Source: Ruminococcus sp. (lineage in GTDB: Bacteria; Bacillota; Clostridia; Oscillospirales; Ruminococcaceae). From it: a stretch of DNA of 48,515 nt. Under the pieces are notes generated by a model. That model was not told where the DNA came from, ran no database searches, and saw nothing but the letters and a program-made list of their open reading frames with translations. How positions within the stretch are numbered: the stretch's first letter is position 1; each line of letters starts with the position of its first letter. Of the stretch, positions 646 to 44,025 are shown piece by piece. The stretch spans positions 1 to 48,515 of the forward strand of contig JAGCHA010000051.1 of the NCBI GenBank assembly GCA_017649325.1, read 5' to 3'. Position numbers and translations under genes: made by a program.

Positions 646-945
646 ATGGATATCAAGCTTATCGACCGCGGTGAAAACGGCGAGCTCATCCTTACGGGAA
701 GGCTCGAGACCAAGAATGCAGACGAGGTATGCGAGCTTTTCCTCAAGCTTGCTGACCGCTTCAAGGATCTGACACTTAATATGCAGGGATTAAAGTACAT
801 TTCAAGCGCGGGACTTCGCGTGCTTAAAAAGACATACATGAAGCTGCACAGCAACGGCGGCGAGCTCTTTCTCACAAATGTGCCGCCGTATGTGAAAGAA
901 GTGCTTGAAATGACAGGATTTGCGGAGATATTGAACGTAAAATGA
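646..945 (+). CDS. STAS-domain protein (anti-sigma factor antagonist family)
   Basis: This 99-residue protein is a single STAS domain of the SpoIIAA/RsbV type. It shows the LTGRLET opening strand and the central YISSAGLRVLKK motif, whose second Ser corresponds to the residue phosphorylated by RsbW/SpoIIAB-type kinases. In the family the unphosphorylated form binds the kinase and frees its other partner. Here the gene is coupled to the acidic protein upstream (one-base gap) and overlaps the next ATG by four bases (ATGA), so it is co-translated with a giant exported protein. A kinase, phosphatase and two more STAS proteins lie 10 kb downstream. Whether this copy belongs to that circuit is inference. 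Length is normal for the family. Confidence 0.9.
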   Translation: MDIKLIDRGENGELILTGRLETKNADEVCELFLKLADRFKDLTLNMQGLKYISSAGLRVLKKTYMKLHSNGGELFLTNVPPYVKEVLEMTGFAEILNVK

Positions 946-6900: not shown

Positions 6901-8057
6901 ATGATGCTTCGGGTACAATGATCGGCGGAGTTTATTCCTCCAACGGCTCGTATGATATCAAGAACGCGCTTATGGAGTATGACCTTGCAGAGGGGATAAC
7001 GGGCGAGGGCAGTGTTGCACCGCTCAGTATCAGATTCAAGACGGCAAAAGCTATGAAGGGGGTTGAAAGCGGAACGGCCACACCTGTTCGTGCGATGATC
7101 TATTACACCGACCAGATGGGGGCGGCGCAGACGTATCAGATCAGCGATCTGAGAAAGTTTATCCAGCTTACCGATACCTCACCGAATGCCGTGACCGAAG
7201 ACGATAACGACAACACCGTCGCAAACTCGACAAATAATACTTGGAAGTTTGTGCGTGAGTTCGAGACGAATTCATGGAAGACCGTAAAGCTCTTCCTGCC
7301 TGAGTGCAATGAGATCAAGAGCATCTGGGTTTGCCCGTACGGAGGCGGAGACGTCGACGCTATGTGGTACCTTGAGCAGTTCAGCGGAACTCTCGGAATT
7401 GACAAGGCCATCAAGCCTTATGCAAGCTTCGACAGACTTATTGATGAGGAACTCAAGGAGAGCACGGCAGGTACCGAAATAGCTCTGTATGATGTTTCGA
7501 TGTCAACTCAGCTGTTCGCAAACGGTGTAGTTACTCCTTCAACGAACCACTTCGCATCTGCAACGATAGAGAGCGGAGATGTGGCTAAGATAACCGTAAA
7601 GATCAGGGGCGGCGACAGAAAGTATGCCGTTGATACGTACGAGATAGTAAACGGCGTCAAGGTAAAGGCTCCCATTACTTTCGTATCGAATAAGACGGAA
7701 ACAGAGTTCTGGTTCACTCCTGATGAAAATGAAACAAAGGATACAAAGAGCTACCAGATCAGCGTATATTCAGAGGATAACAAGTACGTTAGAGACGAAA
7801 TATACGTTATGGTTCGTCCGAAGCCCGAAACTACCACGACAACTACCGTTACAACAACTACGACGGAGACTACTACTACCACTGCCGAGACGACAACTAC
7901 TACAGCGGCAGAGATCACAACGACTACGGAAACAGAGGCTCCGCCTGAGACAACGGCTCCTGCCGAGACAACTACTGAGGCTGTCACGGTACCTACAGAG
8001 TCTTATACCGAGGAAAGCTCCGAGGACACGACTGAGTCCGAGGAACAGTCGGAATAA
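942..8057 (+). CDS. Giant exported protein with three ricin-type lectin modules and Thr-rich C-terminus
   Basis: The 2371-residue product starts with a basic stretch and a hydrophobic helix (FIALALAAGILGV) that acts as a signal peptide or anchor. Residues about 780-921, 947-1090 and 1134-1277 are three related beta-trefoil-like modules of the ricin B-lectin type: each begins with (N/D)GD(I/V)(L/V)xF(R/K) and closes with a QKWYV/QCWYV/QRWYA-type strand. A short charged coil (KLAEEERKKEEAEEAARQ) separates modules 2 and 3. Residues about 640-775 have a PLAT-like look (GAGTAGETYVKL). The rest is repeated beta-rich sequence I cannot name. Residues about 2296-2371 are a Thr/Glu-rich linker with no dockerin, LPXTG or transmembrane anchor after it. 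The likely role is carbohydrate or surface binding. The ATG overlaps the STAS stop, which fixes the start. No catalytic domain was recognised. Confidence 0.85.
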   Translation: MKMLNFYKEAAKRFIALALAAGILGVPEGYEAMHRSKTKSMKTYTFSALATDEEKGKDDSKSSFNEVEGTEVEDDEFAQETTQTVAVGASGFEEYTTTTVTTIPSGPVAYVGDQILRMEAASPWDEPELAERVKQKENKEINVTVPAKETYSKAISKLSDASAMEEGYYTLTVSTGISPGTNVEYFAVRYLDKKGNPQTKYIFPKTHSLKATHDFITGLTTSSEAAKAQMEELDKKHSVLNDYDYTEVTEPATKALASWTVDDFMFYAPNGLTKITSVEAFLSKGSWTVQGIEVSKVNSQTYYGEYGFYTGKYFLAMDRTRICELKKKKQGTLTLSAVSDTLINIGGSESQYFELNTNFEEAHVDNPLDDLYSIRLDIADELKSGIETYLKNDPSDLSPAAKLNLEHIAVEIEYQDVNGWTRNVTMPFLLSVLGQYDFYNVENLNMDNADGSTVEGIGNVRSTGLCQRGDTVAFTACLPEFKSLISTKMYVGSKAREVLKQTGGIQLASEKKIEDLNEQLSELRKEDFVDDTKVDRCLVDIDIEKGKLKNYDDLIYELDNDDIALSSISIYDGICVMGNTPDVTSNSKKWYSYATGFAFASDAPLYYSTTTKDTGFVLNSGTADSFSMRAYSANNPLIGYNMSGNFMVRIKTDNMVGAGTAGETYVKLSYQNGSGEIVTTRLYNVRDEVMNYLGYWPSDDSATSDYAYLHGVAENNIVEFPVQLEDVVAVTGIELSVDSYSGDEWQVDSVSVAVIDKIGNRYTFVSSDDVDLASNGARNIKDGDILTFKCKHGGQYLSVEDSVTKSGTNVLVDEKSSASEWKAVDAGDGWFNLFSQIGDGSMAMDVKGASKDNSTNIQIYSHNTTAAQKFKFKANKDGTYSILTGTTNGESCVDYSKLSNGNVHQYKNVYGDNQKWYVDITRDSSYVPVSEAATASPTEAANVPKSHDSINDGDVVSFRNSKTGLYIGVDDKWNVIQTTAENRTYFVAAMYGDLTLFYVNGSGTQTAKQVVTGGNDSTLSVTQARILKDSTPNPSRLYRICDLEDGTFSFETGSGGFMIDVSDGSAESGAAIKTTSSSLNNDSQCWYVEIDGVDVVTPKAAVKLAEEERKKEEAEEAARQADIEARTVREYTPVDQINNGDILYFRNQYTDLYMSYSGEPSDRSNVFQSEQKEAAAFKAVELDNGWFQFVCVEDENFVLDRQASGGNKDEAEIFLFTNNGTANQTFKIKTFTDGTFMFITGGTDERSCVQADKLVGVGDNICQWTVTGEKEQRWYAEKMTSYVQDDTDDPTNGGKLDPNAVVPYDTDLNPYSSDGDHSAYYVIREVEMTVIPPFPLKYADDEAKSLIIAGQSVTFSSGRGRVIRSEDLNFDDVRYSMPYEYTSRDYGYTRSSKTFDLIVKVADDPSAGNINGDSGSKNYFYFQLLFKYGGSALVLANQQLSSDGFRAGMGETFSISVNRDYGELTSIRILPEDVQEDSDIFDKLNIEQITVTERVYGDTSTQYVADNVGWIGIDYHDSAEDSSIQGRSGRTIGNISKTVGISYKQTVVNFLAEINTLPWDSDYLQVEGSIACDLEYIDIDGQPQTASFDVVKRMAEYMNKSPRVVEAASDGSNASLFTNMGCVSDPQWMLRPNHTDRFMLPSLPNVKSLTSITFYATSRNNKPGKWVIGSVSISRIIKDGGIVTLNSNGEYYRTMETKGFCENKKERKKEELFLPAGTTQSLKLNFNTNVIDWIDYKTELSSVSRLPDSTNDELNIYIYPENPERLDITNSIVKTAVQYTIPYSQVMQAKQSTLSVANSGTADAVFYTKGLAVSSMNNLVKMGIQCRDQYVLFDYAIVEQVREGVVVNTYHFTFHGESGLLGITKAPDDYTTVYEPMQQVVSLSLSEASEESALFATTDTNSKTSNIAIAMRYTSTLDPGNTEYYSPYVYLTDIGINKIYPGMMIDVPFDIPYVKDIKGYKIASFGNKINARVKGSMAVNYNNSSANDASGTMIGGVYSSNGSYDIKNALMEYDLAEGITGEGSVAPLSIRFKTAKAMKGVESGTATPVRAMIYYTDQMGAAQTYQISDLRKFIQLTDTSPNAVTEDDNDNTVANSTNNTWKFVREFETNSWKTVKLFLPECNEIKSIWVCPYGGGDVDAMWYLEQFSGTLGIDKAIKPYASFDRLIDEELKESTAGTEIALYDVSMSTQLFANGVVTPSTNHFASATIESGDVAKITVKIRGGDRKYAVDTYEIVNGVKVKAPITFVSNKTETEFWFTPDENETKDTKSYQISVYSEDNKYVRDEIYVMVRPKPETTTTTTVTTTTTETTTTTAETTTTTAAEITTTTETEAPPETTAPAETTTEAVTVPTESYTEESSEDTTESEEQSE

Positions 8058-8180: not shown

Positions 8181-8978
8181 ATGAAAAATATCATTGAAAA
8201 AATACTGAGAAACAAGGTGCTGAGGATCCTTATCCCCGCAGTGCTGATACTGGCGATAATCGTATTGGTGCTACAGATGACTTTCATGGGCGAAGAAAAG
8301 ACCACGGAAGAGTCATTTTTCACGGAGTACGATTATCCCGCGGAAGTCGTTACGGATAAGAAGGGACTCCATATAAAGCTCGACGGAAGCGAATCGCCCG
8401 AACTCAGCTGGGAGATCGTCTCAGACGAGGAGCATATCACGGTCGATAAGGTCGGCAAGGAGGTCGACGGCAAGCTCGAGCTGCTTGTCAACCCCAAGGA
8501 GGAAGGCTACGCGAACATAAGTTGTAAGCGCAGCGGAAAGGTCGGCGAGCTTGATTATACAGCGGTCGATTTCACTATTTCAGTACTGGTTTCGTCTGAC
8601 GAAAACAAGCTTACAGCCTCTATATCCGATATGTACCAGACTTCCAGCGAGGCGGGAGCTCTCGATTCAGAGACGCCTTTCCTAATAGACGGAATGTGGG
8701 TCATTTTCCCGAATGGCGGCAATTGGGAGATATTCCCCGAAAACGAGGAGAAGCTCCCCGAAAGACTTTACAGCGTGACCTTCACCACAAATGATGCGGG
8801 CTACAGGTGCGCGATAGTAACGTTCGATCCGCCTGAGGAGCTGGTCGGCGACTTTGAACAGCTTGAGAAGATAATTTCCAGCAGGCTCATTATCAGAAAT
8901 ACGGATATCGGCTATGAAAAGCATCTTTCATGTGCTGTCGGAGCCGACGGTGCAATGTGCTTGAATGTGGAGGACTGA
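8181..8978 (+). CDS. Membrane-anchored extracytoplasmic protein of unknown function
   Basis: The 265-residue product has a basic N-terminus followed by one strong transmembrane helix (about residues 14-34, RILIPAVLILAIIVLVLQMTF). The remaining 230 residues have no further membrane segment, so they probably face outside. That part is beta-rich and acidic; I see no named motif. It lies 120 bases after the giant lectin-like gene and one base before the next start codon, so it is read with the following gene. No catalytic residues can be proposed. A role at the envelope alongside the giant exported protein is inferred from gene order alone. Confidence 0.8.
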   Translation: MKNIIEKILRNKVLRILIPAVLILAIIVLVLQMTFMGEEKTTEESFFTEYDYPAEVVTDKKGLHIKLDGSESPELSWEIVSDEEHITVDKVGKEVDGKLELLVNPKEEGYANISCKRSGKVGELDYTAVDFTISVLVSSDENKLTASISDMYQTSSEAGALDSETPFLIDGMWVIFPNGGNWEIFPENEEKLPERLYSVTFTTNDAGYRCAIVTFDPPEELVGDFEQLEKIISSRLIIRNTDIGYEKHLSCAVGADGAMCLNVED

Positions 8979-8979
8979 T

Positions 8980-9546
8980 ATGCCCGTGAATTATTCTGAA
9001 AAAGACATAGATATCGACTTCAGCGACGGCGCGCAGGAGCAGCAGCTTACCGAGAAGCAGCAGAGAAAATATCATCACCATGAGATAAAAAAGCTGCTCA
9101 TGGGCAACCTTGCACGGCGCGAGGACGGCAAGTCCGAACTTAGGAATGAGCTCTGGGTCACTCCGTGGGGCGTCGGCGATGGCGCTCTCGAGACGCTGAT
9201 GTTCGGCGTATCGCGCAGGAAGTACAAGTTTGAGACAACGCTGCGGAACAATACTCAGGCGCTCTACCAGTCGGAGAAGGCAATGCACAACATCGGCAGT
9301 GTTCTGTATATGCATTCGGCTCCCGAGCTGAAAGCTTGCTTTATCAGGAGTATCGGTTTCCGCCCTGTGATACTTGCATTCGACGAAGAGGACGGGGAAC
9401 TCGTGCTCCGCGCCTATAGCGGCAGAGCTCCGCTTACGTTCCTGTCTATCATGCATGCGGTCTCGAAGTTTGAGAAGTCACTGCCATCTCAGATATATCG
9501 ACAAGGCAAAAAGAGAACCGCAAATGACAAAAACAAGAAGAAATAA
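8980..9546 (+). CDS. Conserved-looking cytosolic protein of unknown function
   Basis: I place the start at the ATG at 8980, because a GGAGG at 8969-8973 lies six bases before it; the in-frame ATG at 8965 would overlap the previous gene and has no ribosome site. The product is 188 residues with no signal peptide. It has an acidic N-terminus (EKDIDIDFSDG), a central globular region (residues about 50-165, including LWVTPWGVGDGALETLMFG) and a basic C-terminal tail (KKRTANDKNKKK). I do not recognise the family. It is coupled to the membrane-anchored gene upstream (stop at 8978) and is the last gene before the large hairpin at 9550-9680. Confidence 0.75.
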   Translation: MPVNYSEKDIDIDFSDGAQEQQLTEKQQRKYHHHEIKKLLMGNLARREDGKSELRNELWVTPWGVGDGALETLMFGVSRRKYKFETTLRNNTQALYQSEKAMHNIGSVLYMHSAPELKACFIRSIGFRPVILAFDEEDGELVLRAYSGRAPLTFLSIMHAVSKFEKSLPSQIYRQGKKRTANDKNKKK

Positions 9547-11092: not shown

Positions 11093-11722
11093 ATGAAGAC
11101 TGACATCATCACTGTATTCAGCGACCTCCGCGGACGCGAAGAAGCCATGGATACCGCCGAGCGCTTTGCGGCCTACAACGGCATCAGGGGCAAGGAGGCT
11201 ATGCATCTCCGCCTGCTGACGGAGGAGACCATTTGTATGGTACATGGGATACTCGACAACTTCCGCGCCGATTTCTGGCTCGAGACCGAAAAGACAAAGC
11301 ACGGACTACTCTGCAAGATATGCCTTTCCGCCGACAAACAGGCTAACAGGGCTCAGGAAAAGCAGATACTCTCAGTCTCTACAAGCGGAAAGAATGAGAA
11401 TGCCAGGGGCATTGCGGGAAAGATACGCGAGGTGCTCCGCCGCAGTCTCCAGACCGAATCGGCTGAAGACGAGCAGTTCCTCAAAAATATCAGCGACGTC
11501 TGCCTCGGCATGGGAACAGGCAGCGCAAATGTCGTAATGCCGAGCGCGAGCTTCTGGTCGCTCAGCCTGTACAGGCAGAATCTTTCCGAGAAGAAGGAGT
11601 CAAAGTCGGAGGAGTGGGACGAACTCGAAAAGTCAATAATATCCAAGCTCGCAGACGAGGTGAAGGTCTGGCTCGAGAACGACAGGACAGAAGTCGTTAT
11701 CGAGAGATACTTCAATGCCTGA
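11093..11722 (+). CDS. Degenerate RsbW-like (GHKL ATPase fold) protein, probable non-ATPase
   Basis: The 209-residue protein sits between two STAS genes, where an RsbW-type kinase would be expected. Residues about 20-80 resemble the start of such kinases: a helix leading to LRLLTEETICMVHGI, the position of the N-box. However, the Asn of the N-box is missing (the box reads EETICMVHG) and no DxGxG loop follows. Residues about 85-209 are helical and charged, with no clear G2 box. I infer a kinase-fold protein that lost ATP binding and may act as a STAS-binding scaffold. The assignment rests on position and one weak motif, so an unrelated family is possible. AAGGAG precedes the ATG, 11 bases after the previous stop. 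Confidence 0.6.
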   Translation: MKTDIITVFSDLRGREEAMDTAERFAAYNGIRGKEAMHLRLLTEETICMVHGILDNFRADFWLETEKTKHGLLCKICLSADKQANRAQEKQILSVSTSGKNENARGIAGKIREVLRRSLQTESAEDEQFLKNISDVCLGMGTGSANVVMPSASFWSLSLYRQNLSEKKESKSEEWDELEKSIISKLADEVKVWLENDRTEVVIERYFNA

Positions 11723-12080: not shown

Positions 12081-12503
12081 ATGAAAGAACTTTTTATCGA
12101 AGCTATCAATGATAACCTCGATCAGGTGCTCGCATTTGTTGATGAACAGCTTGAGGAAAATGATTGCCCGATGAAGGTGCAGATGCAGATAGACCTCGCG
12201 GTGGAGGAGATATTCGTCAATATCGCGAATTACGCATACGACCCCGAAACGGGTCCGGCGACCGTGAGAGTTGACGTAACTCCCGATGGTTCTGTGGTGA
12301 CAATTACATTTGTGGACAACGGCGTGCCGTATGACCCGCTCGCAAAAGCAGACCCCGATATCACACTGTCCGCCGAAGAAAGGCAGATAGGAGGACTCGG
12401 GATATTCCTCGTTAAGAAGAACATGGACGACGTAAAGTATGAATATGTGAACGGAAGCAACATCCTCACTCTTAAAAAAGGCTTGAGAGGTGAAAAGCGT
12501 TGA
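12081..12503 (+). CDS. RsbW/SpoIIAB-type serine kinase, anti-sigma factor family
   Basis: The 140-residue protein has all the marks of an active GHKL-fold kinase: the N-box (LAVEEIFVNIANYAY, with Glu-Glu and Asn), the G1 box (FVDNGVPYDP) and the G2 box (GGLGIFLVKK). In this family the enzyme phosphorylates a STAS protein on Ser and binds either it or another regulator. Length is normal. The stop overlaps the TTG start of the phosphatase gene by three bases, so stoichiometry is coupled. No sigma factor is encoded nearby, so the released output could be a distant sigma factor or a non-sigma target. Confidence 0.9.
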   Translation: MKELFIEAINDNLDQVLAFVDEQLEENDCPMKVQMQIDLAVEEIFVNIANYAYDPETGPATVRVDVTPDGSVVTITFVDNGVPYDPLAKADPDITLSAEERQIGGLGIFLVKKNMDDVKYEYVNGSNILTLKKGLRGEKR

Positions 12504-14686
12504 AAAAGTTTTTGGGGATAACTTTCGGCGGACTTCACAGTAAAATACTGGCTGTGCTGCTGATATTCCTGCTGGCTATCGTTGGCTTCAATACTGCCGT
12601 CTCGATATACAAGACGTCTACGCTCTCGAAAATAGTCGATGAATCAGGCAAGGAACAGCGTGCGGCTATAGAACAAGTATCGGGAGATACGATGTATAAG
12701 ACGATTGAGAACTCGCTTACAACAATTAATACTCTGCGTGCGGAAAAGCTCGATGATGAATTCGCCGGGATAGAGAACAACATATTTATGCTCCAGGATC
12801 TGGCAAGGAATTTCTTTGAGAATTCCGATGAGCTCGAGCCCGCATCTGTTCCTCTGCCCGACCCCGACAATGAGAACGAGCTTGAGGTACACCTTCTCTT
12901 TGAAGAGGGCGTTGATTATTCGCGCTCGGAATATGTCGGCATTGCAGGACATATGGTCGATACGATGGTATCGATGGTCGAGACGAATGACATGATGGAC
13001 AGCTGCTATATCGGACTCGCTGACGGTACTCATATCGGAGTAGGCTGCGGCGGTGCGGACAAATACGACGAAAACGGCAAGCAAAAGCCATATCCCGTCC
13101 GCCACAGACCGTGGTATGTAAGCGCTCTCGAAAAGGGCGACATCATCTTCACGGGTGTTGAGCGCGACGCGTTCAATAATTCTCTGAGCGTGACCTGTGC
13201 TGCGCCTGTCATCGTAAACGGCAGAACTGTAGGTGTTGTCGGCGCAGACATCACCATTGCAAACATGGATGAATTTGTCGACGAAGCAAACAGTGATGCT
13301 GCATTCATCTTCGTTATCAACAATGACGCTCAGATCATTGCAGTTCCCGAAAACAACGGCATATTCAAGGTCGATGAATCCGATAACGCCGAGGATCTCA
13401 GGAACTCTGACAACAAAGCGCTTGCTGATTTTATCACCCGCGCACTCAAAGCCCCGACAGGTCTCGAAACAGTGACCCTCAACGACAAGGAGTACTACCT
13501 CTCGGGCGTACCGATGAATACGATGGGCTGGGCTGTAGTGTCTGTCGTTGACAAGGAGATTACAACAAGCTCTACCAATTATCTGCTCTCAGAGATAAAT
13601 AGGATAAACACAGATTCAGCTGATAAATTCAGAAATGGTATGAAAACGCTGAGTGCGCTGTCATTTGTTATAGTCATTCTGATAATCATAGTCGGCTCAC
13701 TAAGTGCGCTTATCGTTGCCAACAGGATAGTAAAGCCCATAACGGCAATGACTGATAACATTACAGGTAAAAGCGGTGTAAACGGCGCCTTCGAGATGAA
13801 GGATATTTACCGTACAGGTGACGAGATACAGGTGCTTGCTGAATCCTTCAACGACCTGTCTGTGAAAACGCTCCGGTACATAGAAAACATTACGGAAATT
13901 ACCAAGGAAAAGGAACGTATCGGAACGGAGCTCTCGCTCGCGACCAAGATACAGGTAGGTATGCTCCCGCACATCTTCCCGCCGTTCCCGCACCGCCATG
14001 AGATAGACATATACGCGCTGATGGAGCCTGCAAGAGAGGTCGGCGGCGACTTCTACGACTTCTTCCTCGTCGATGAGGACCATCTCGGTATGGTCATGGC
14101 TGACGTATCGGGCAAGGGCGTTCCCGCAGCTCTCTTTATGATGATATCCAAAGCGCTGATCAAGAGCAATGCTATGCTCGGACAGTCGCCGGCAGAGGTG
14201 CTCATGAAGGTCAACAACCTCATCTGTGTAAACAATCAGGCAGAGATGTTCGTAACAGTATGGCTCGGCATCTTTGAAATATCCACAGGCAAGCTCACAG
14301 CCGCAAATGCGGGCCATGAATACCCCGTTATCAAGCACACCGACGGAAACTTTGAGCTCTACAAGGACAAGCACGGCTTCGTTATCGGAGGCATGGAGGA
14401 CGTCCGCTACAAGGAGTACACCATTGATATGAAGAAGGGTGACAGGATCTTCCTCTACACTGACGGCGTACCCGAAGCGACAGACTCGCAGGAGCAGATG
14501 TTTGGCACCGATCGTATGCTCGAGGCTCTCAATATCGACAGTGAAGCTTCTCCGAAGCAGCTCCTAAAGAATGTACGCAATGCCGTGAACAAATTTGTAA
14601 AGGAAGCCGAACAGTTCGACGACCTGACTATGATGTGCCTCGAATACAAGGGTTCTGAGCCTTTGGACAGCAAGCAGGAAAAGTAA
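12500..14686 (+). CDS. Membrane sensor phosphatase: dCache, HAMP and SpoIIE/RsbU-type PP2C domains
   Basis: The 728-residue protein has a first transmembrane helix (residues about 15-36) and an extracellular dCache-type sensor (about 40-370, with the RHRPWYVSAL and FNNSLSVTCAAPV strands). A second helix (about 387-408), a HAMP linker and a C-terminal PP2C domain (about 495-720) follow. PP2C metal-ligand motifs are intact: GGDFYDF (Asp517), ADVSGKGVPAA, LYTDGVPEA and DDLTMMCLE. It would dephosphorylate the STAS proteins in response to an external ligand, restarting partner binding. Start is a TTG inside the upstream stop, with GAGAGGTG before it. The next gene overlaps by one base. Confidence 0.93.
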   Translation: MKKFLGITFGGLHSKILAVLLIFLLAIVGFNTAVSIYKTSTLSKIVDESGKEQRAAIEQVSGDTMYKTIENSLTTINTLRAEKLDDEFAGIENNIFMLQDLARNFFENSDELEPASVPLPDPDNENELEVHLLFEEGVDYSRSEYVGIAGHMVDTMVSMVETNDMMDSCYIGLADGTHIGVGCGGADKYDENGKQKPYPVRHRPWYVSALEKGDIIFTGVERDAFNNSLSVTCAAPVIVNGRTVGVVGADITIANMDEFVDEANSDAAFIFVINNDAQIIAVPENNGIFKVDESDNAEDLRNSDNKALADFITRALKAPTGLETVTLNDKEYYLSGVPMNTMGWAVVSVVDKEITTSSTNYLLSEINRINTDSADKFRNGMKTLSALSFVIVILIIIVGSLSALIVANRIVKPITAMTDNITGKSGVNGAFEMKDIYRTGDEIQVLAESFNDLSVKTLRYIENITEITKEKERIGTELSLATKIQVGMLPHIFPPFPHRHEIDIYALMEPAREVGGDFYDFFLVDEDHLGMVMADVSGKGVPAALFMMISKALIKSNAMLGQSPAEVLMKVNNLICVNNQAEMFVTVWLGIFEISTGKLTAANAGHEYPVIKHTDGNFELYKDKHGFVIGGMEDVRYKEYTIDMKKGDRIFLYTDGVPEATDSQEQMFGTDRMLEALNIDSEASPKQLLKNVRNAVNKFVKEAEQFDDLTMMCLEYKGSEPLDSKQEK

Positions 14687-15969
14687 TGGAAAGTATTTAT
14701 GAAAGAATAATCCATAGTATGTCGGAGGGCGTCATCGTTATCCTCTTTGACGGTAGGATAGACTTCTGCAATCAGGCAGCAGCCTCCGCCGTTCAGCGCG
14801 ATACCTCGCAGATCATCGGCAGGAGCATTGCTGAACTGATGAGCGAATTTGAAGAAAACGATGCCTTCTTCGAGCTTATCCTCGACGCCGTTTACTCAAA
14901 GAAGAAGGTCAGCAAGACCGTTCCTTTCTTCACCAACGACGATATGAAGTATCTCCACGTCACAACGGCTCTGCTTACAGAGTCGGACAAGGGGAACGGT
15001 CTGGTCATCGTTATCAGGGACATGACCGAGGAGGTCAAGCTCTTTATCAGCAACAAGCGCCTCGCAAATCAGGTCATCAACCTTATGGATTCCTTCGTGG
15101 AGGTAATGGTCACTGAGATAGAGGAAAAGTCTACCTATAACGCAAATCATACAAAGAGGATGGTGTGTTATGCGGCGAGCTATCTCGAAAAACTTCGCGA
15201 AGAGGGAAAACTCGCTGACGTAACAAACGAGAATATCCACCCTCTGTTGATGAGTATATGGCTGCACGACATAGGAAAGCTGCTTGTTCCGCCCGAGATA
15301 CTCGACAAGGCAACGCGGCTCGGCGACGGGCTCACTGATGTGCTGCACCGCATTGAGACAGCGCAACTCATGCTGAGATTAAAAATGTATCAGGAACCGG
15401 AAAAGAAGGGCAGTCATGAGGCTCAGATTCGCAGGATAGGGGAGGCAAAGAAGCTGATACTCTCCTGCAACTCCGCAGGCTTTCTCGATGAAGGCAGTAT
15501 CGCGAAGCTCCGCGAGGCAGCAGGTCTGACCTGCCTTACTGCAGACGGAGAAAGCATTCCTCTGCTCAGCGATGACGAGCTCGAAAATCTGACAGTCGTC
15601 AGAGGGACGCTCACGGCGGACGAGAGAAAAATCGTGGAATCACACGTGGCCTTCACCCGTGAGCTCCTTTCAAAAATGGAATTCCGCGGAGAATACAAGC
15701 AGGTGCCGAAATGGGCAGCGGGACATCACGAGATGCTCGATGGCTCGGGCTATCCCGATAAACTGAAAGCCGATTCGATTCCGTGGGAGACACGCCTGCT
15801 GACGATAATCGACGTGTATGACGCCCTCACAGCTGAGGACAGACCCTATAAGCCTCCGCTTCCTCCCGAAAAGGCATTCGAGATACTGCGGGATATGTCC
15901 GCGCAGGGAAAGATTGATTGGGAGATACTCGAAAGCTTTTATCAAAGCGGTGCGTGGAAACGGGAATAA
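14686..15969 (+). CDS. PAS/HD-GYP protein, putative cyclic-di-GMP phosphodiesterase
   Basis: The 427-residue cytosolic protein has an N-terminal PAS-like sensor (residues about 1-115) and an HD-GYP domain. The catalytic HDIGK is at His194-Asp195 and the second signature HHEMLDGSGYP at residues 347-357, so metal ligands and the GYP loop look intact. About 150 residues separate the two, roughly 70 more than I expect; the extra part (about 225-300) is helical and charged. Family members hydrolyse cyclic di-GMP or related dinucleotides. No GGDEF cyclase is encoded in the window. It overlaps the phosphatase gene by one base (TAATG) and closes the operon, linking partner switching to a second-messenger output. 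Confidence 0.88.
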   Translation: MESIYERIIHSMSEGVIVILFDGRIDFCNQAAASAVQRDTSQIIGRSIAELMSEFEENDAFFELILDAVYSKKKVSKTVPFFTNDDMKYLHVTTALLTESDKGNGLVIVIRDMTEEVKLFISNKRLANQVINLMDSFVEVMVTEIEEKSTYNANHTKRMVCYAASYLEKLREEGKLADVTNENIHPLLMSIWLHDIGKLLVPPEILDKATRLGDGLTDVLHRIETAQLMLRLKMYQEPEKKGSHEAQIRRIGEAKKLILSCNSAGFLDEGSIAKLREAAGLTCLTADGESIPLLSDDELENLTVVRGTLTADERKIVESHVAFTRELLSKMEFRGEYKQVPKWAAGHHEMLDGSGYPDKLKADSIPWETRLLTIIDVYDALTAEDRPYKPPLPPEKAFEILRDMSAQGKIDWEILESFYQSGAWKRE

Positions 15970-16120: not shown

Positions 16121-17419
16121 TTATTTCATGCCCAAATGCTTTGAGCGCTTTACTGCCTTGTTGACCTCTGTCTTTGATCTGGCTGTCCGCTTCTGAGTCT
16201 TGCCGCTTGTGTTCGACAGCTCTTTTTTCATCGAGCCGCCTTCCTTTCCGTTGGCTATGCGGCTTTTAAGAGCCTTGACTGCTGGCGGCTTCTTTTCGGA
16301 GTTTTCCTTTGCGGGAGCCTCGTGCTTCATGTGGCTTTTTGCCTTCTCTTTCAGGCTCCTGCGAGGCTTTTTCTGCCCCTGCTTTGTGACTTCGGCTATC
16401 GGCTCCGCAGTTTTATTGACTGCGGGCTCTGCCTCTCTGTTCTTTTCCCGAACCTTGTCAAGCCTCTCCTCCGCCAGATCGAGTATCTCCAGCGCAGACT
16501 CAAAGCGCACTCTGTTCTTTTTCAAGAACGGTTTCCAGTCGGGAGCCTTGTTGTTTTCGGGATGCATCAGGTCGTCTCCGCGCTTCTTTTGTATGTAGGT
16601 CTCGGCAGCCTCAACGATAGCCTTCAGGTATTTCTCCTCGTCGCGGGTGCTTGCTGTGCCCTCGTTTTTTTCCAAAAGGTAGATGTTGTACTCAGCTATC
16701 GCGTTTTTCAGGTCGCTAAGTTCGTCGGTGTTTTCACCGATGACATTCAAATGCTTGGCATTCAGTCCCTTTGACGCCTTCAGCAGATTGTTCAGGAAGG
16801 CGTCGCTCTCGTCGCGCGCTCCGACATATGACCATTCCTTGAGTATTTCCTCCTGCTCTTTGTGCTTTTTCTCTTCGAGCTCGAGCCTTGTCGCTTCGTC
16901 AACAGACTCCTCCTTTTCCTCTTTTTCAGGCTTTTTCGGCTCCTCGACCTGAACAATGCGCGGCTGAAAATCATCAAAGATTTCCCTTTGCTTGTCAGCC
17001 TCGATCTTTGCATCAAGCTTGTCGTTCAGCAGCTCAAGGAGACTCAAATACTGCTGACCGTTTTTGAGCTGTCCGTTCTTCGGACCTATGGCATTGTCGG
17101 AAAAGTAGCTGAGATTCCTGCCCGAGCGCAGCATATTGATGAAGCCTACGAGCCTCTGCATATCTTCGTCCCATTTTTTCTTTTTTTCCTCTTCGTCCTC
17201 ATCGGGGACAGGCTCTAAGATAGAATTATCCCTCAAATCCTCGAGTGCTTCTCTTAGTTCTGTGTGCTCCTTGTACTCCTCGCTGTTCTTGTCCTCGGAA
17301 GAAAGAGCATCGTATGTGAGCTTCAGAGCAGAAGCAAAGCTGCCGAGGAGCTCCTGTTCCTCGGGAGAGAACCCCTTGTTTCCTGTCTTTTTCATAAATT
17401 CGTCATACGAAAGCGGCAT
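16121..17419 (-). CDS. Charged cytosolic protein, divergent partner of the giant gene
   Basis: I place the start at 17419 (MPLSYDEF), because a perfect GGAGGT lies seven bases upstream; a longer frame reaches 17518 but has no ribosome site. The 432-residue product has no signal peptide. Residues about 1-90 are globular and helical, followed by acidic and Lys-rich segments (PDEDEEEKKKKW). A second helical region (about 190-310: SDAFLNNLLKASKGLNAKH through AAETYIQKKRGDD) comes next, then a strongly basic tail of about 110 residues (for example KKPRRSLKEKAKSHMK). I recall similar helical modules in large Ruminococcus-type proteins of unknown function, but cannot name a family. It shares a two-part promoter motif with the 2033-residue gene on the other strand. 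The basic tail could bind nucleic acid; this is inference. Confidence 0.75.
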   Translation of the reverse strand: MPLSYDEFMKKTGNKGFSPEEQELLGSFASALKLTYDALSSEDKNSEEYKEHTELREALEDLRDNSILEPVPDEDEEEKKKKWDEDMQRLVGFINMLRSGRNLSYFSDNAIGPKNGQLKNGQQYLSLLELLNDKLDAKIEADKQREIFDDFQPRIVQVEEPKKPEKEEKEESVDEATRLELEEKKHKEQEEILKEWSYVGARDESDAFLNNLLKASKGLNAKHLNVIGENTDELSDLKNAIAEYNIYLLEKNEGTASTRDEEKYLKAIVEAAETYIQKKRGDDLMHPENNKAPDWKPFLKKNRVRFESALEILDLAEERLDKVREKNREAEPAVNKTAEPIAEVTKQGQKKPRRSLKEKAKSHMKHEAPAKENSEKKPPAVKALKSRIANGKEGGSMKKELSNTSGKTQKRTARSKTEVNKAVKRSKHLGMK

Positions 17420-17880: not shown

Positions 17881-20800
17881 ATGGCAACAAGCTATAGCGA
17901 TGTAAGCAAAGCTCTGAAAAATGCGCTGAAGGATTCCGAGAACAAAAAGTATGAATTTAATGAACAGTTCCAAGGATTTATGAATTCCGTATCAGCACTG
18001 GTAGATGTTCTGAATATAAGAAAACAGAGGGATACTATCAAAGAAAAAGATCGTATTGCTCTCTATGATGCTATCATCCAGCTTATCAATTGCTATCAGA
18101 CCGGCGCCTACACGCATAAGGGCGCTGAGATAGCAAGAGCCGAGGATTTTAAGCTCTATCAGGAGTATACAAAAAACGTACAAGAAAAGATAGACGTTAT
18201 CCTTAATAAAACAGTAGAAGAAAATTCAAAGCAGAATGATGTCATTAATCTGTTCAAGGGACCACTGAATAATGTAAAGGATGCAGCGGAGAATTTCATG
18301 TTTGATCTGCGCAAATCTGCATCACAGCCTCAAATTGACAGATACGTTAAAGAGATCTCAGGTATTGCTACGAATGCCGATGAACTTGAATACAAAAAAG
18401 AAATAAGCGAGGGTACGCAGAAGCTTATGCACAGTGTATTGATAGGCGCTACCACTATCGCCGACAATCAGCTTCTCACTCCTGAGACCAAGGAGGAGCT
18501 TACACGTGCATTCCGTGATTATGTTAAAACCTATCAGGATAATCTGTTCAACGAAGAAAAGCGCAAGGCTATCATTGTCGTTGACGATCTCACTGTAATA
18601 AACAGTGCATCAGGCAAACTGGGCCTTGCGATAGATGAGGCAGTAAAACAACTTTCGGTCACAAATAATGATGATTTCGAGTATGATATAACATTTCTCA
18701 ATAAAATAAAGGATGACGTTCAAAAAGACGTTAGTGAGCTCACCAACAACCTCATTGCTAACAGACAGGAGGCAAGAAAAGAAGAGCTCGACGATATGGC
18801 TCAGCGCGAAGAAGAAAAATTCAGACAGGCAGAGGATGCAAAGGCTGCTAAGCAGGGCTATATTGAAAAAGGTGAGCAGCAGACACCGGAGCAGATAGCG
18901 CTGAAGAAAATTATCGAAGAACAGCCGAATCTGCTTGCAAAAACGCCGTATATCGACTCGATTTATGACCTTCTCGGCATTGATGAGAATTCGCTTCCTG
19001 AAGGAGAGGTGACTTATACTACCCGTTCAAGGGATGGTAAGGATATCGAGCATAAACGTAATTTGCGCGATGAACTGAGAGAGCTCAAGCAATCGGCTAT
19101 GGAAATGGCTAAGGTCACTGCCAAGTATTATGTAAAATCCGAGGGTAAGGACGCAAAGACCGAATACCTCAATCTGAATCAGCTCAAGGAAATTGAGGCT
19201 GAATACGATAAATTCTACAGACTTAGCGGCGGATTCAGATATGCGGCGATCAACTCTAATTCGCTCCCTGCAGAATCAGATGTTCTGGACAAAGTCAAAA
19301 AAGTCAGAAATGAATCCCTCAATATCGGTGTCAACCTTAATAAGGCTGTAAACTACATCGAGACATATGCTCTCAAGGGTGAGCGTGACAAGCACAAGCT
19401 CTTCTCGATGTATGAGATGATGGGTCATCCCAATCCCGACCTCGACGGAAACTTCTCTGCTGAGGTTGCGAACGTTATGAATAAGGTGACCAAGCTCAAC
19501 GAAGCCCTGAATAAAGCAAAGGACTCCGAAGCCGACAAGGCGGAAAAGAAAGAAGGAAAAACACTCAGAAAATACGTTGAAGAATCGGTTGAAAAGATCG
19601 CTCCCGCACTTGCCAACCTTACAGAAAACATACTTCCTCAGACCTTCATTAACGACGGTACCGTGGATATAGAACGTGATAAGGAAAGCGTACTCCCGTT
19701 TGTGGTAGAAAAGGATATCAAGCAGCTTACAGCGGCTTACCGTGAAGCTTTCCTTGCAATGCATGAATTCATGACCGTTTGCAATAAAAGAATGGAGACC
19801 AATAAAAAGGTTGAGGGACGCAAGCACATGGAGCAGTCGGAGTATGAGCTCTATGAAGCTTTGACTCCTGTATATGAGAAGGTAAAGGACAAATACCTTC
19901 TGCTTACCTACCTCGATAAGCCTGAACCCGAAAAAGAAAAGGAAAAGAAGGCAGAGGCTCCCAAAAAGGGTGCTAAGGGTCAGAAGGAGCTCACTCCCGC
20001 AGAGCAGGCTCAGATCGATACTCAGAAGATCGTTGATGAGCTCGGTAACGAATTAGATGCCTACAACGCGCAGCTCCAAAAGTTCAGAGAAAAAACAAGG
20101 GCAGAGGCTGAAAAAGAAGCCAAAAAGGAAATTAAAGAGGAAGAAAAGGCTTACAAAAAGCTCCAAAAGGAAAACAAGAAGAAAAAAATACCGACTCCCA
20201 GCAGAGACTTCAATAAGGAGCTTGCTTTAAAAACCGAAGCGAAATACAAGGAAAAGCTCGCCAAAAGAGTCGATATGAAGGAAAAGGGCAAAAAGATCCA
20301 CGATTTCTATGATTATGTCCTGAACTGCAAGGAGATGTACAGAACGAAGCAGCTCCTGCCGCAGTTCCTGCTTGATGACCCCAAGCAGCCCCGTATATCA
20401 ACTATCCTTTCGATGCACCAGAAGAAAAAGGATATCGACTATGCGATAGAATTCGAGAAAAAGCTTACCGCGCAGCCTTGGAAGGACGGAAAGCGCGATT
20501 TCAGCACAATAACCAACGACTTCAAGAAGCACAGGATGCAGCTGGGTACCGATGACAAGATAATCCAGTTCAACACCAAGAATGACTACAAGCAGTTTGA
20601 GAGAGTAACCCACGATACTATCAAGGGTTTCTTCTGTCCAACAGTAGAAAAGATAGAATACACCGGTCTCATAAATGTTGTCAATAAAAAGACGAACAAG
20701 GTTGTCGCCTATGATGAAGAAGGAGTCAGAAAAGCGCTTAAAGTCGGAATAGGCGATACAATAGAGTTCAAGGAAGGAGAGAAAGTAGTAAAAATCGACG

Positions 20801-23800
20801 TTGCAAGAAAGTTCGGAGATTATTTGTTCTCACATTCTAACCCTAAGGAGGAAGCTCCTAATTTCTCAGATGATCTTAAAGATATTTTTACAAAGGATGA
20901 GCTCGCTCACAAGGAAGTACAGGATTATGTACAAAAGCTCAATGAAAACTTCAAGTTTGAAGCCGACGGTAAGAAAAAACTCGAATTTGGCAAGTTAAAG
21001 ATCAGCGAGAAAAAAGAGGTGGATGTAAAAGATCTTCAAAAGAAGCTTATCAAATACGCCGACAAATATTGCAAGCCCGATGATAACGATAAGATACATA
21101 TTACCGAATATGACAACGAAAAGGGCTTTGACGCCTTCTTTGAAGAAAACGGATTTACAAAGGAAGAAGTCGAAAAATCCATCTTAGGAGACTTTGCGAC
21201 GGCTATCAAGCGCAATCTCAAAAATGCAGGCTTCTGTAAGGAGGCAAAGATGAGAGATGATATCCCCGACGGCTATAACGAGGGTATCGCAAAAGACCTC
21301 GTCTACAATCTCGCTCCCGGAGTATATCCCAAGGTAACGGTATATGAAGACATAACCCTGCCATTCTATATGGGTCAGGCTCAGCCCGACCAGCTTTCTC
21401 ACGTAAAGGTAGCACGTGTTGACAACAACTTCAATCGCGTACTCAATTACAAGGAATATGATATATGTGTCATTGACAAGAAAAACGAGAAAACAGGGAA
21501 AATGGAGGAAGTTGTTGCCCCCGTGATCATGTCTCCTGAGGAACTTAAGAAAGTCAGAATAGTTAAAACTGTGGAAGGTCCGCTTGTCCATTCAACAGTC
21601 AAGGACTTCAGAAAGTGTGCATTTATCGGCGACCTCCCCAACAGGAACAATTTCGCGAACCCTGCGCTCTTTGAAGGCAAGTCTGATTCTGAGATAGAGG
21701 ATATGATAAGTAAGGGTCTCGATAAGGGCGACAATTCTACTTCTCCCCGTACCGTTCAGGTTCGCAACTATCAGTCTTTCAATCACCCCTCTGTGCTCCA
21801 GGCGGCTGCTGACATACAGGTAATGGATTATCTGCTCGGTATCCCCAAGCGCGATGTCGATGATATCCGTATAGACTTTCAGGCCACTATGATAGACGGA
21901 AAAATTGAGCCTGAGGTCCAGGGCATAAGTGCCGCTGATAACGGAAAGCTTCCCTTTACTGCTAAGGACGATTCAGAGCTCACTAAACCTGAAGATATGC
22001 GCATTATTACAGCGACTATGGCAGAAAAAGTTGACAGATGGGCTAGAGGAGAATTTTATGAGCCTGAATTGGAAAAGTTTGATTCGCTTCCTGAGGAATG
22101 CTTGGAGAAATTCAAGAAGAACGCCCAAAAACTCGACCGGGTTATAAAAGCATCCAAAAGCGTAGAGTGGAATGACCCGCCGATAAATCCTGAAACAGGC
22201 GAGATAATCCCATACAGTGTTTATGATGTTCATAAGGGACATATACGTATACTCGATGAGAAACAGCTCTTCAAGATGAATATGGACGACCTTGCCGTTG
22301 CAAGAAATGAAGCCAAGACAGAAAAGGAAAGAGATAATTGCAAGCCCAAGAATATTTTCGATACTCTTGCGAAATTGCCCAAAGCCTGCAATAATGCGCT
22401 CATCGACAAGACCCTCCACCATCTTGACGTCGAAAACAAGAGCGAGGAGTACGGCTCATACAGCAAGGGAGATCACACCTTCCTCGGTAAGAAGAGCGAC
22501 GACAAGACCAGAGACGTTCTTACAAAGCGCTTCAACAAATACGAGACCGAGCGCCTTTTCAACAAGATTCATCGCCTCACTCCCGAACTGTGGATAATGG
22601 ACAAAGATCGCTCAAAAGAATACTTTACTCACAAACTGTTTGGAAGCAGCCATGAATACCATGAGGTAAGAGAGTCGGTCATTGACCTGAACAAGCTGAT
22701 ACACGACGAAGTACAGCTCGCAAGGAAGGAAGAGATGTATGACGCAGAAAACAGGCAGAATCTCAGCAATGAAGACATCGCCGCAATAGAGAAAAGAAAA
22801 GGAGAGCGTCAGAAATTAAGAGAAAAACTTGCTGCCGAAAAGGGCAATGATAAGATAATGAGAAATGTTCCTGCAAAGGAAGACCCGCTCATCTACTATA
22901 AGGTACAGCAGAAGGCTGTTGATACCATAAAGAAGATAGAGGATTATCTTGACAAGGACGCGACCGTAAAGAGCGAATTCGGCAAGCAGAGACGAAGGAC
23001 AATGGTCAGCATCTACAACAAGCTCAACAAGCAGCTTGATGAGTATGCTCAGCTCACAGGAGATACTTCCTACGCTCCGAAGCAGATAACGCTCAACGAG
23101 AAGAACTTCACTATCACTTACTCGAATATGTACAAGAATCGTCACGACTTCGAGATGGCTCTGCCGATTTCCGTAAACCGCGAGTATCAGGAAAATACTA
23201 TTGAGCGCAGAAAGCGGGATGAACTGATCAATGATGAAAAAGAGGGCATTAAGAAACAGCTACGTGATGAGCGTAAGGCTTATGAAAAAGCTATCACTGA
23301 TAAGATCAAAAATGCTGAAGCCGGACAGGATAAATCACTGTATGCCAATGTTGAGCATGATGATAATAATTCCAAGGAAATAGAGATCAAAATGAAGGAT
23401 GGCACGACAAAAAAAGTTCAAGACAATATCAAGTATACAGAGATCCATATGGCGAATGGCACGATCCGCAAAGTTCCTGTTGTCAAAGAAAAGCTCAAGA
23501 CGGCAAAGGATCTCATACAAGAGAAGAATGCCAGCATCGATACCAGTGGCAAGACCCAGGAAGAGATCAATGCCGAAAAGGAGTCGAATCTTTTGCATTT
23601 CGGCGGAGACTTTACTGTTATCGACGCTGCTGCACAGCGTCAGATAGCACGGGAAGAAGCATTGGAATACAACAATGATCCGAAAAATGCGAAGAAAGCT
23701 AATAAGGCTGCCCCCCCAATCGTTGCCAACTTCTATGACGATATGGTCATCGCTGATAGTGAGACAATGCGTAAAGAAAACTCCACGTATGCTGATCCCA

Positions 23801-23982
23801 ATACCAAGAAGGGCAGAAATGCGCCGAATCCCACCTTTAACAGCAAGAGAAAGGTAGAAAAAGCAGCTCAAGCCGCAGCCCAGGAAAGAAAAGCTAAAGA
23901 TACTGCTAAAAAGAAGAAAGCGGACGAAGCCTACAAGAAGGCATTTGAAAAGAAGGTTAAAAAAGGCCGTGGTATGAGTTGA
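17881..23982 (+). CDS. Giant Lys/Glu-rich cytosolic protein with a degenerate kinase-like segment
   Basis: The ATG at 17881 (MATSYSDV) has GTGAGG eight bases upstream; a TTG at 17824 lies in a hairpin and is less likely. The product is 2033 residues without signal peptide or membrane helix. It is mostly helical, with coiled, charged stretches at about 288-327 and 737-770 and a Lys-rich C-terminus (about 1995-2033). Residues about 1305-1360 resemble the catalytic core of HipA/PI3K-like or actin-fragmin-type kinases: QVMDYLLGIPKRDVDDI sits where such enzymes have a G-x-x-D-R-H-x-x-N loop, and 30 residues later GISAADNGKLPF matches a metal-binding IDN-x-x-x-F strand (Asp1353). The loop Asp and Asn are replaced, so it may be a pseudokinase. 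A/T content is higher than in neighbouring genes. I know of no assigned function. Confidence 0.8.
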   Translation: MATSYSDVSKALKNALKDSENKKYEFNEQFQGFMNSVSALVDVLNIRKQRDTIKEKDRIALYDAIIQLINCYQTGAYTHKGAEIARAEDFKLYQEYTKNVQEKIDVILNKTVEENSKQNDVINLFKGPLNNVKDAAENFMFDLRKSASQPQIDRYVKEISGIATNADELEYKKEISEGTQKLMHSVLIGATTIADNQLLTPETKEELTRAFRDYVKTYQDNLFNEEKRKAIIVVDDLTVINSASGKLGLAIDEAVKQLSVTNNDDFEYDITFLNKIKDDVQKDVSELTNNLIANRQEARKEELDDMAQREEEKFRQAEDAKAAKQGYIEKGEQQTPEQIALKKIIEEQPNLLAKTPYIDSIYDLLGIDENSLPEGEVTYTTRSRDGKDIEHKRNLRDELRELKQSAMEMAKVTAKYYVKSEGKDAKTEYLNLNQLKEIEAEYDKFYRLSGGFRYAAINSNSLPAESDVLDKVKKVRNESLNIGVNLNKAVNYIETYALKGERDKHKLFSMYEMMGHPNPDLDGNFSAEVANVMNKVTKLNEALNKAKDSEADKAEKKEGKTLRKYVEESVEKIAPALANLTENILPQTFINDGTVDIERDKESVLPFVVEKDIKQLTAAYREAFLAMHEFMTVCNKRMETNKKVEGRKHMEQSEYELYEALTPVYEKVKDKYLLLTYLDKPEPEKEKEKKAEAPKKGAKGQKELTPAEQAQIDTQKIVDELGNELDAYNAQLQKFREKTRAEAEKEAKKEIKEEEKAYKKLQKENKKKKIPTPSRDFNKELALKTEAKYKEKLAKRVDMKEKGKKIHDFYDYVLNCKEMYRTKQLLPQFLLDDPKQPRISTILSMHQKKKDIDYAIEFEKKLTAQPWKDGKRDFSTITNDFKKHRMQLGTDDKIIQFNTKNDYKQFERVTHDTIKGFFCPTVEKIEYTGLINVVNKKTNKVVAYDEEGVRKALKVGIGDTIEFKEGEKVVKIDVARKFGDYLFSHSNPKEEAPNFSDDLKDIFTKDELAHKEVQDYVQKLNENFKFEADGKKKLEFGKLKISEKKEVDVKDLQKKLIKYADKYCKPDDNDKIHITEYDNEKGFDAFFEENGFTKEEVEKSILGDFATAIKRNLKNAGFCKEAKMRDDIPDGYNEGIAKDLVYNLAPGVYPKVTVYEDITLPFYMGQAQPDQLSHVKVARVDNNFNRVLNYKEYDICVIDKKNEKTGKMEEVVAPVIMSPEELKKVRIVKTVEGPLVHSTVKDFRKCAFIGDLPNRNNFANPALFEGKSDSEIEDMISKGLDKGDNSTSPRTVQVRNYQSFNHPSVLQAAADIQVMDYLLGIPKRDVDDIRIDFQATMIDGKIEPEVQGISAADNGKLPFTAKDDSELTKPEDMRIITATMAEKVDRWARGEFYEPELEKFDSLPEECLEKFKKNAQKLDRVIKASKSVEWNDPPINPETGEIIPYSVYDVHKGHIRILDEKQLFKMNMDDLAVARNEAKTEKERDNCKPKNIFDTLAKLPKACNNALIDKTLHHLDVENKSEEYGSYSKGDHTFLGKKSDDKTRDVLTKRFNKYETERLFNKIHRLTPELWIMDKDRSKEYFTHKLFGSSHEYHEVRESVIDLNKLIHDEVQLARKEEMYDAENRQNLSNEDIAAIEKRKGERQKLREKLAAEKGNDKIMRNVPAKEDPLIYYKVQQKAVDTIKKIEDYLDKDATVKSEFGKQRRRTMVSIYNKLNKQLDEYAQLTGDTSYAPKQITLNEKNFTITYSNMYKNRHDFEMALPISVNREYQENTIERRKRDELINDEKEGIKKQLRDERKAYEKAITDKIKNAEAGQDKSLYANVEHDDNNSKEIEIKMKDGTTKKVQDNIKYTEIHMANGTIRKVPVVKEKLKTAKDLIQEKNASIDTSGKTQEEINAEKESNLLHFGGDFTVIDAAAQRQIAREEALEYNNDPKNAKKANKAAPPIVANFYDDMVIADSETMRKENSTYADPNTKKGRNAPNPTFNSKRKVEKAAQAAAQERKAKDTAKKKKADEAYKKAFEKKVKKGRGMS

Positions 23983-43953: not shown

Positions 43954-44025
43954 TATAGTATATGAATGGTTTTACTTTGAGTTTATTTCTCACTGCTATA
44001 CTTACACAGAATGGGAGACGGTATT

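What the first reader, a model, noticed from the sequence alone, without database searches (positions are those of the whole stretch)
17881..23982. Giant cytosolic protein with a degenerate kinase-like core
The 2033-residue protein has no recognised family along most of its length. Around residues 1305-1360 the sequence QVMDYLLGIPKRDVDDI and, 30 residues on, GISAADNGKLPF look like the catalytic and metal loops of HipA/PI3K-like kinases, with the loop Asp and Asn replaced. A pseudokinase inside a huge helical protein, in a region more A/T-rich than its neighbours, suggests an accessory system rather than housekeeping.
Basis: partly seen in the sequence, partly recalled or inferred. Interest (0 to 1): 0.75.

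Follow-up and report, generated by a model that had tools for sequence, protein, structure and literature searches.

The report
Giant accessory protein, degenerate kinase domain
A Ruminococcus-type bacterium carries a 2,033-residue protein whose core appears to descend from a kinase related to lipid kinases but lacks the residues needed for phosphate transfer; it belongs to a rare, fast-evolving family.

Summary
In detail: one intact 2033-codon frame, AT-richer than its flanks, without a Pfam, NCBIfam or PDB sequence match. The kinase reading, made by eye, is supported by profile comparison. Residues 1296-1475 match the C-lobe of intact tandem kinases in two other genera of the family (hhalign probability 96.7; 92.2 with domain copies not used to find them; shuffled controls far lower). 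One of those kinases passes Pfam's PI3_PI4_kinase cut-off. In register, catalytic Asp is K1323 and catalytic Asn is D1328; metal-loop D1353 survives. All seven homologues compared (this one included) lack both catalytic residues but share K-R-x-x-acidic-acidic-x-R, which points to a re-tooled site rather than decay. The gene is rare, has dN 2-30 times that of seven syntenic genes, yet is under purifying selection. Its divergent neighbour carries a module that recurs near pseudokinases of another genus and, in a longer profile, matches the C-terminal tails of the intact kinases; it was not found near two other pseudokinases. Best reading: an accessory scaffold or regulator whose dead kinase domain binds a ligand or partner. 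Function is inferred. New variant of a known kind.

The parts
17881..23982 (+). giant protein, 2033 aa, colinear with homologues of 1448-1622 aa; residues after about 1760 are absent from the G109 and G133 homologues
21184..22305 (+). residues 1102-1475, a well conserved block that contains the degenerate kinase domain
21766..22305 (+). residues 1296-1475: stretch matched to the C-lobe of intact PI3/PI4K-like tandem kinases
21817..21867 (+). degenerate catalytic loop QVMDYLLGIPKRDVDDI (1313-1329): catalytic Asp is K1323, catalytic Asn is D1328; K-R-x-x-acidic-acidic-x-R in 7 of 7 homologues compared
21922..21957 (+). degenerate metal loop GISAADNGKLPF (1348-1359): D1353 kept here and in the orthologue, not in the other 5 of 7
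16121..17419 (-). divergent neighbour, about 432 aa from MPLSYDEF (465-codon open frame), conserved in R. flavefaciens YRD2003
16412..16816 (-). small module shared with proteins next to pseudokinases of genus g137
11093..11722 (+). 209-aa gene of the adjoining regulatory cluster, found with the SpoIIE/HD genes in relatives; no Pfam hit at E 0.001
12500..14686 (+). dCache-SpoIIE (PP2C-type) phosphatase
14686..15969 (+). PAS-HD domain protein

Best explanation
The protein is a cytosolic giant built around a degenerate PI3/PI4K-HipA-Fam20-like kinase domain. Shown by sequence: the C-lobe is homologous to intact tandem kinases of the same bacterial family; the catalytic Asp and Asn are replaced; the replaced site carries its own conserved motif in all seven homologues compared; the gene is under purifying selection but evolves fast; it occurs in few genomes. 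Inferred: the domain no longer transfers phosphate in the usual way and serves as a binding platform for a nucleotide, another ligand or a protein. The giant scaffolds or regulates an accessory system that includes the divergently encoded module protein and may be tied to the adjoining SpoIIE-type phosphatase cluster.
For: hhalign of 7 pseudokinase domains against 4 intact domains: probability 96.7, E 3.3e-10. The two first-domain copies, not used in finding the family, give 92.2, E 6e-7, score 52.6 against at most 21.1 in 100 column shuffles. With all four, score 71.7 against at most 26.2 in 40 shuffles; reversed control probability 0.1. The kinase profile's one hit in this genome is this protein, E 1.2e-5. 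Intact relative L033 scores PI3_PI4_kinase 33.1 bits against a cut-off of 27.1; the profile's PDB hits include PI4K type II and FAM20A, weakly (E 0.006-0.12). K1323, R1324 and R1330 are invariant and 1327-1328 acidic in 7 of 7. dN/dS 0.335; dN 0.211 against 0.007-0.113 for 7 syntenic genes. Module shared between neighbours in two genera; a longer profile of it matches the C-tails of the intact kinases.
Against: No N-lobe or Gly-rich loop was found. The pseudokinase domain alone hits no kinase family in Pfam or the PDB, so the link runs through intact relatives that were themselves picked by a pseudokinase profile. The kinase profile misses the G109 and G133 pseudokinases in whole-genome search at E 0.1 (0.028 and 0.018 in a small local set). 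The reverse profile hits one of four intact domains only at 0.28. The module was not found within the stretches fetched round the G109 and G133 pseudokinases, is not significant inside the giant (E 0.05-0.22), and a narrower profile of it barely matches the kinase tails. The phosphatase link holds for 4 of 12 locus groups, three of them at one homologous cluster, so it may be an insertion hotspot. Few sequences (Neff about 2). No function was measured.
Confidence: 0.5

Rival explanations
1. The domain is not dead but re-tooled: it uses the kinase fold for another reaction (as SelO does AMPylation and SidJ glutamylation, recalled), with the conserved K-R and acidic pair as new active-site residues.
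For: K-R-x-x-acidic-acidic-x-R is kept in 7 of 7 homologues compared, down to 25-26% overall identity to the window protein, which decay would not give. D1353, at the metal-binding Asp position, is kept in the window protein and its orthologue.
Against: D1353 is absent in the other 5 of 7. The N-lobe that would hold a nucleotide was not found. No assay.
Confidence: 0.2
2. It belongs to a conflict arsenal: giant charged proteins with enzyme or dead-enzyme domains used against competitors, phages or eukaryotic grazers, with the shared C-terminal module as a sorting or assembly tag.
For: Fast evolution, rarity, gene content that differs between the two closest loci (YRD2003 has an extra 704-aa gene), arrays of giant charged proteins in G260 of genus g137 with genes between them that I read as integrase- and relaxase-like, a shared tail in kinases and module proteins, and a weak hit of intact kinase L033 to the phage-defence candidate PDC-M03A (E 6e-4).
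Against: No PADLOC hit at E 0.1 for the giant or its neighbour. No relative found in the phage, plasmid or viral collections. Secretion genes were not searched for; no signal peptide is evident by eye.
Confidence: 0.2
3. Pseudokinase partner of an intact kinase in the same cell, activating it allosterically (as FAM20A does FAM20C, recalled).
For: Fold group and residue losses resemble FAM20A; the intact-kinase profile weakly hits FAM20A.
Against: In the 9 genomes compared, the tandem kinase and the pseudokinase do not co-occur: 7 have only the pseudokinase, 2 only the tandem kinase. No HipA_C in this genome. Caveats: this assembly is 84% complete, and small DRH-loop proteins exist in some pseudokinase genomes (G133 read).
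Confidence: 0.05
4. The loop resemblance is chance in a low-complexity charged protein.
For: Few sequences per profile; K/E-rich composition.
Against: Reversed and column-shuffled controls never approach the real score; the real protein beats 1000 shuffles of itself.
Confidence: 0.05

Closest known systems
Unnamed tandem PI3/PI4K-like kinases of the same bacterial family (L033 4946-8968, 1340 aa; L034 4010-8143, 1377-codon frame)
   Same: C-lobe sequence in register, large size; their C-terminal tails match a longer profile of the module found beside some pseudokinase loci
   Different: two kinase domains each, with DRH or DRN, catalytic Asn and DND intact
Type II phosphatidylinositol 4-kinases / Pfam PF00454
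   Same: loop pattern LDYIIRNTDRGNDNW...AIDNGLAFP is close to the window's MDYLLGIPKRDVDDI...AADNGKLPF
   Different: the window protein lacks catalytic Asp and Asn, has no detectable N-lobe and no direct profile hit
FAM20A / Fam20C
   Same: FAM20A is a pseudokinase within the same broad fold group; weak PDB profile hits through the intact relatives
   Different: FAM20A is an animal secretory-pathway protein paired with an active paralogue (recalled); no such pairing was found here
HipA kinases
   Same: broad fold group; HipA_C weakly hit by intact relative L033 (E 0.008)
   Different: no HipA_C hit in the window protein or in this genome; a HipB partner was not searched for
Legionella (pseudo)kinase effector families (PMC9758233, passages seen)
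   Different: no delivery system or effector status shown here

Membership tests
PI3/PI4K-HipA-Fam20-like kinase superfamily (by descent) | C-lobe sequence homology | tested here: met
   link to intact relatives; one relative passes the PF00454 cut-off
PI3/PI4K-HipA-Fam20-like kinase superfamily (by descent) | two-lobed fold | not testable with these tools
   structure prediction switched off
PI3/PI4K-HipA-Fam20-like kinase superfamily (by descent) | N-lobe with Gly-rich loop and ATP-binding Lys | tested here: inconclusive
   no N-lobe match
catalytically active member | catalytic-loop Asp | tested here: not met
   K1323; Lys in 7 of 7
catalytically active member | catalytic-loop Asn | tested here: not met
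   D1328; Asp or Glu in 7 of 7
catalytically active member | metal-loop Asp | tested here: met
   D1353 here and in the orthologue, but not in the other 5 of 7
HipA | HipA_C profile | tested here: not met
   none in the genome at E 1
HipA | HipB antitoxin next door | not tested
   ORFs small enough for HipB were not listed
known anti-phage defence system | PADLOC model match | tested here: not met
   giant and neighbour 0 families at E 0.1; intact relative L033 weakly hits PDC-M03A (E 6e-4)

The most novel reading that the evidence does not exclude
A rare family of giant proteins in this bacterial family, not described in the papers that could be searched, in which a PI4K-like fold has been converted to a new conserved K-R/acidic/R active or docking site. 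It works with module-bearing partners and a phosphatase signalling cluster as one accessory system.
Probability: 0.25. Interest if true: 0.8.

Novelty: new variant of a known kind. Interest (0 to 1): 0.55.

Why it matters
Pseudokinases of the PI4K/Fam20/HipA fold group appear little described in Gram-positive gut and rumen bacteria (my impression, with five searches of a held library finding none in Ruminococcus). A family with a uniformly replaced, conserved active site, and intact relatives in sister genera, gives a natural before-and-after pair for testing how a kinase becomes a scaffold or another enzyme. It also points to giant charged proteins that standard profile libraries miss.

Tried and rejected
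No Pfam or NCBIfam hit for the giant at E 1, and none in Pfam for the domain at E 10. PDB by sequence gave nothing credible for the giant or its domain. No relative found in phages, plasmids or viral contigs. Whole protein in 60 relatives: own genome only, 1 of 60 at E 0.001. Order-level sample: own genome only, 1 of 394 at E 0.01; the other known members were evidently not in that sample. Of the 11 matching genomes of 396, four carry the pseudokinase (own, G260, G338, G518) and two the intact kinase (G391, G504). Of the other five, G236, G451 and G292 were read and look unrelated; G322 and G446, and a second weak place in G338, were not read. In one search, of 7 matching genomes of 125, four are real (own, G066, G109, G133); the weak hits in G086, G103 and G131, and a further weak place in G133, were not followed.

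Kinase profile in the genus: 11 of 125 genomes at E 0.01. Two are the window protein and its orthologue; the rest are small frames, of which four loci were read, all with a DRH loop (G133, G093, G132, G008).

I expected the module inside the giant near residue 1700 (two profiles aligned there) but it is not significant, so it is not claimed. I expected an N-lobe match at residues about 1130-1180; none. The narrower module profile A7 against the kinase tails was weak (probability 2.6, E 0.017); only the longer profile was strong. A direct HMM scan of the kinase tails with a similar profile was weak for L034 and did not list L033. Four further weak hits of the tail profile were read: two are giants with a cysteine-protease-like motif, counted as loci below; G232 and G354 look like chance and were dropped. 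G012 was left out of the count of 12 locus groups because it was found by looking at the phosphatase locus.

Papers: five searches of a library that lacks most subscription journals and preprints gave no description of this family in their listings. Only PMC9758233 was opened, and 12 passages of it were seen; the others were seen as listings only. SelO, SidJ, FAM20A-FAM20C pairing and the DRHxxN reading are recalled.
Full report
Observation. The frame 17881-23982 encodes 2033 residues without interruption. The two motifs lie at residues 1313-1329 and 1348-1359. The region is AT-richer than its flanks; the gene's GC3 is 50.0% against 59.9-70.5% for seven syntenic genes. Nothing in Pfam, NCBIfam or the PDB matches the whole protein by sequence at E up to 1.

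Relatives. An orthologue of 2031 aa, 68-69% identical, lies at the syntenic place in Ruminococcus flavefaciens YRD2003. Profiles of the conserved core found colinear homologues of 1448 and 1452 aa in two genomes of the same genus (G133, G109) and of 1613-1622 aa in three genomes of another genus of the family, g137. In the genus search 4 of 125 genomes have a real member; in a family sample, 4 of 396 with the pseudokinase; in an order sample, only the window's genome, 1 of 394. The family is therefore rare and scattered.

Kinase origin. The same core profile also hit two proteins, in G391 and G504, each with two intact kinase-like domains (E 3.2e-5 and 0.0066). L033 of G391 passes the curated cut-off of Pfam PI3_PI4_kinase (33.1 against 27.1 bits) and comes just under that of Fam20C; L034 of G504 is just under the PI3_PI4_kinase cut-off (25.3 bits). 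Their profile weakly reaches PI4K type II and FAM20A in the PDB (E 0.006-0.12). Profile-profile comparison of seven window-type domains with the four intact domains gives probability 96.7 and E 3.3e-10. Because the second domains had been hit in finding these proteins, the first domains were tested alone: probability 92.2, E 6e-7, score 52.6, against a maximum of 21.1 over 100 column shuffles. A reversed control gave probability 0.1.

Limits of the homology. The match covers the C-lobe only; no N-lobe could be aligned. The domain does not hit a kinase family directly in Pfam or the PDB. The intact-kinase profile finds the window protein, its orthologue and the g137 homologues, but not those of G109 and G133 in whole-genome search at E 0.1 (0.028 and 0.018 in a small local set). 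The reverse profile hits one of the four intact domains only at 0.28.

Not simple decay. In all seven homologues compared, both catalytic residues are gone and the site has the same new pattern, K-R-x-x-acidic-acidic-x-R; K1323, R1324 and R1330 are invariant. D1353 is kept only in the window protein and its orthologue. Between these two, dN/dS is 0.335, and 0.26-0.49 in each of seven segments: constraint, not drift. dN is 0.211 against 0.007-0.113 in the seven syntenic genes; dS is also higher (0.63 against 0.33-0.55), which may mean a different history such as recombination or transfer.

No tandem-kinase partner. Of nine genomes compared, seven have the pseudokinase and no tandem kinase, two the tandem kinase and no pseudokinase. 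This genome also has no HipA_C match at E 1, though it is 84% complete. Small proteins with a DRH loop exist elsewhere in the genus: of the kinase-profile hits, four loci were read and all four have it (G133, G093, G132, G008). Weak further hits in G066 and on another contig of G133 were not read. A FAM20A-like role beside a tandem kinase is disfavoured; a partner of the small type is not excluded.

Neighbourhood. The divergent gene at 16121-17419 is conserved beside the orthologue and carries a module also found in proteins next to the pseudokinases of G260 and G338 of g137. It was not found in the stretches fetched round the G109 and G133 pseudokinases, nor on the 5.5-kb contig of G518. YRD2003 has one further gene (704 aa) between the two that the window lacks. 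Extended by a C-terminal tail, the module matches the C-terminal tails of the two intact kinases: probability 92.7, E 4.2e-7, and 94.7 the other way round; score 53.9 against at most 20.1 in 40 shuffles. A narrower module profile gave only E 0.017, and a direct HMM scan of the tails was weak. Over the genus the module occurs in 5 of 125 genomes, at 7 places. In G260 the pseudokinase lies in one of two arrays of giant charged proteins, with genes between them that I read as integrase- and relaxase-like.

Phosphatase link. The window's regulatory genes upstream are a dCache-SpoIIE phosphatase and a PAS-HD protein. Of 12 locus groups found by profile search and read with their flanks, 4 have a SpoIIE-type gene in the fetched stretch (window with YRD2003, G009, G106 contig 37, and G504, where it directly precedes the intact kinase on the same strand). 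The other 8 do not: G109 with G133; the first g137 array; G391 contig 68; G106 contig 30; G008 contig 9; G066 contig 8; G391 contig 2; the second G260 array. Of those, G391 contig 2 has a different PP2C next to a giant. Some stretches were short, so absence is weak there. From the other side, 9 of 60 genus genomes have the PAS-HD gene, and a module gene or remnant lies nearby in 5 of these 9 (own, G066, G009, G106, G012); in G106 it lies on the other side of the cluster. Three of the four positive groups sit at homologous clusters, so a shared insertion hotspot is as good an account as a functional link.

Judgement. By descent this is a degenerate PI4K/HipA/Fam20-like domain (about 0.9). Its function as an accessory scaffold or regulator is inferred (about 0.5), with re-tooled chemistry and a conflict role as the main rivals. 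Within the papers that could be searched, no description of the family was found.

Noticed in passing
L070 7152-12104 (-) and 15039-19000 (+); L069 6404-11233 (-): Three giant proteins (1650, 1625 and 1609 aa) with a cysteine-protease-like motif such as GNGCWSCFFQ...HYITI (my reading); the two scanned, the 1650- and 1609-aa ones, reach no Pfam cut-off.
   Followed up: partly
G260 contig 2, 1834917-1862643 and 1893855-1914916 (L073, L032, L075, L070, L076): Two arrays of large charged proteins; of 9 scanned against Pfam none reaches a curated cut-off. Between them lie genes that I read as transport, integrase and relaxase.
   Followed up: partly
L054 8864-9340 (-): A 158-aa remnant of a module gene sits beside the PAS-HD/SpoIIE genes in G009; no giant was seen in the 19-kb stretch.
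   Followed up: partly
window 942-8057 (+): 2371-aa protein with ricin-B-type lectin domains.
   Followed up: no
window 39594-43658 (-): 1354-aa protein with a dockerin type I domain.
   Followed up: no
window 44011-46620 (+): 869-aa frame without a Pfam family at E 0.001.
   Followed up: no
window 8965-9546 (+) and L056 10309-10866 (+): A 193-aa protein without a Pfam hit has a 42%-identical relative next to the SpoIIE/HD cluster and a module protein in G106.
   Followed up: no
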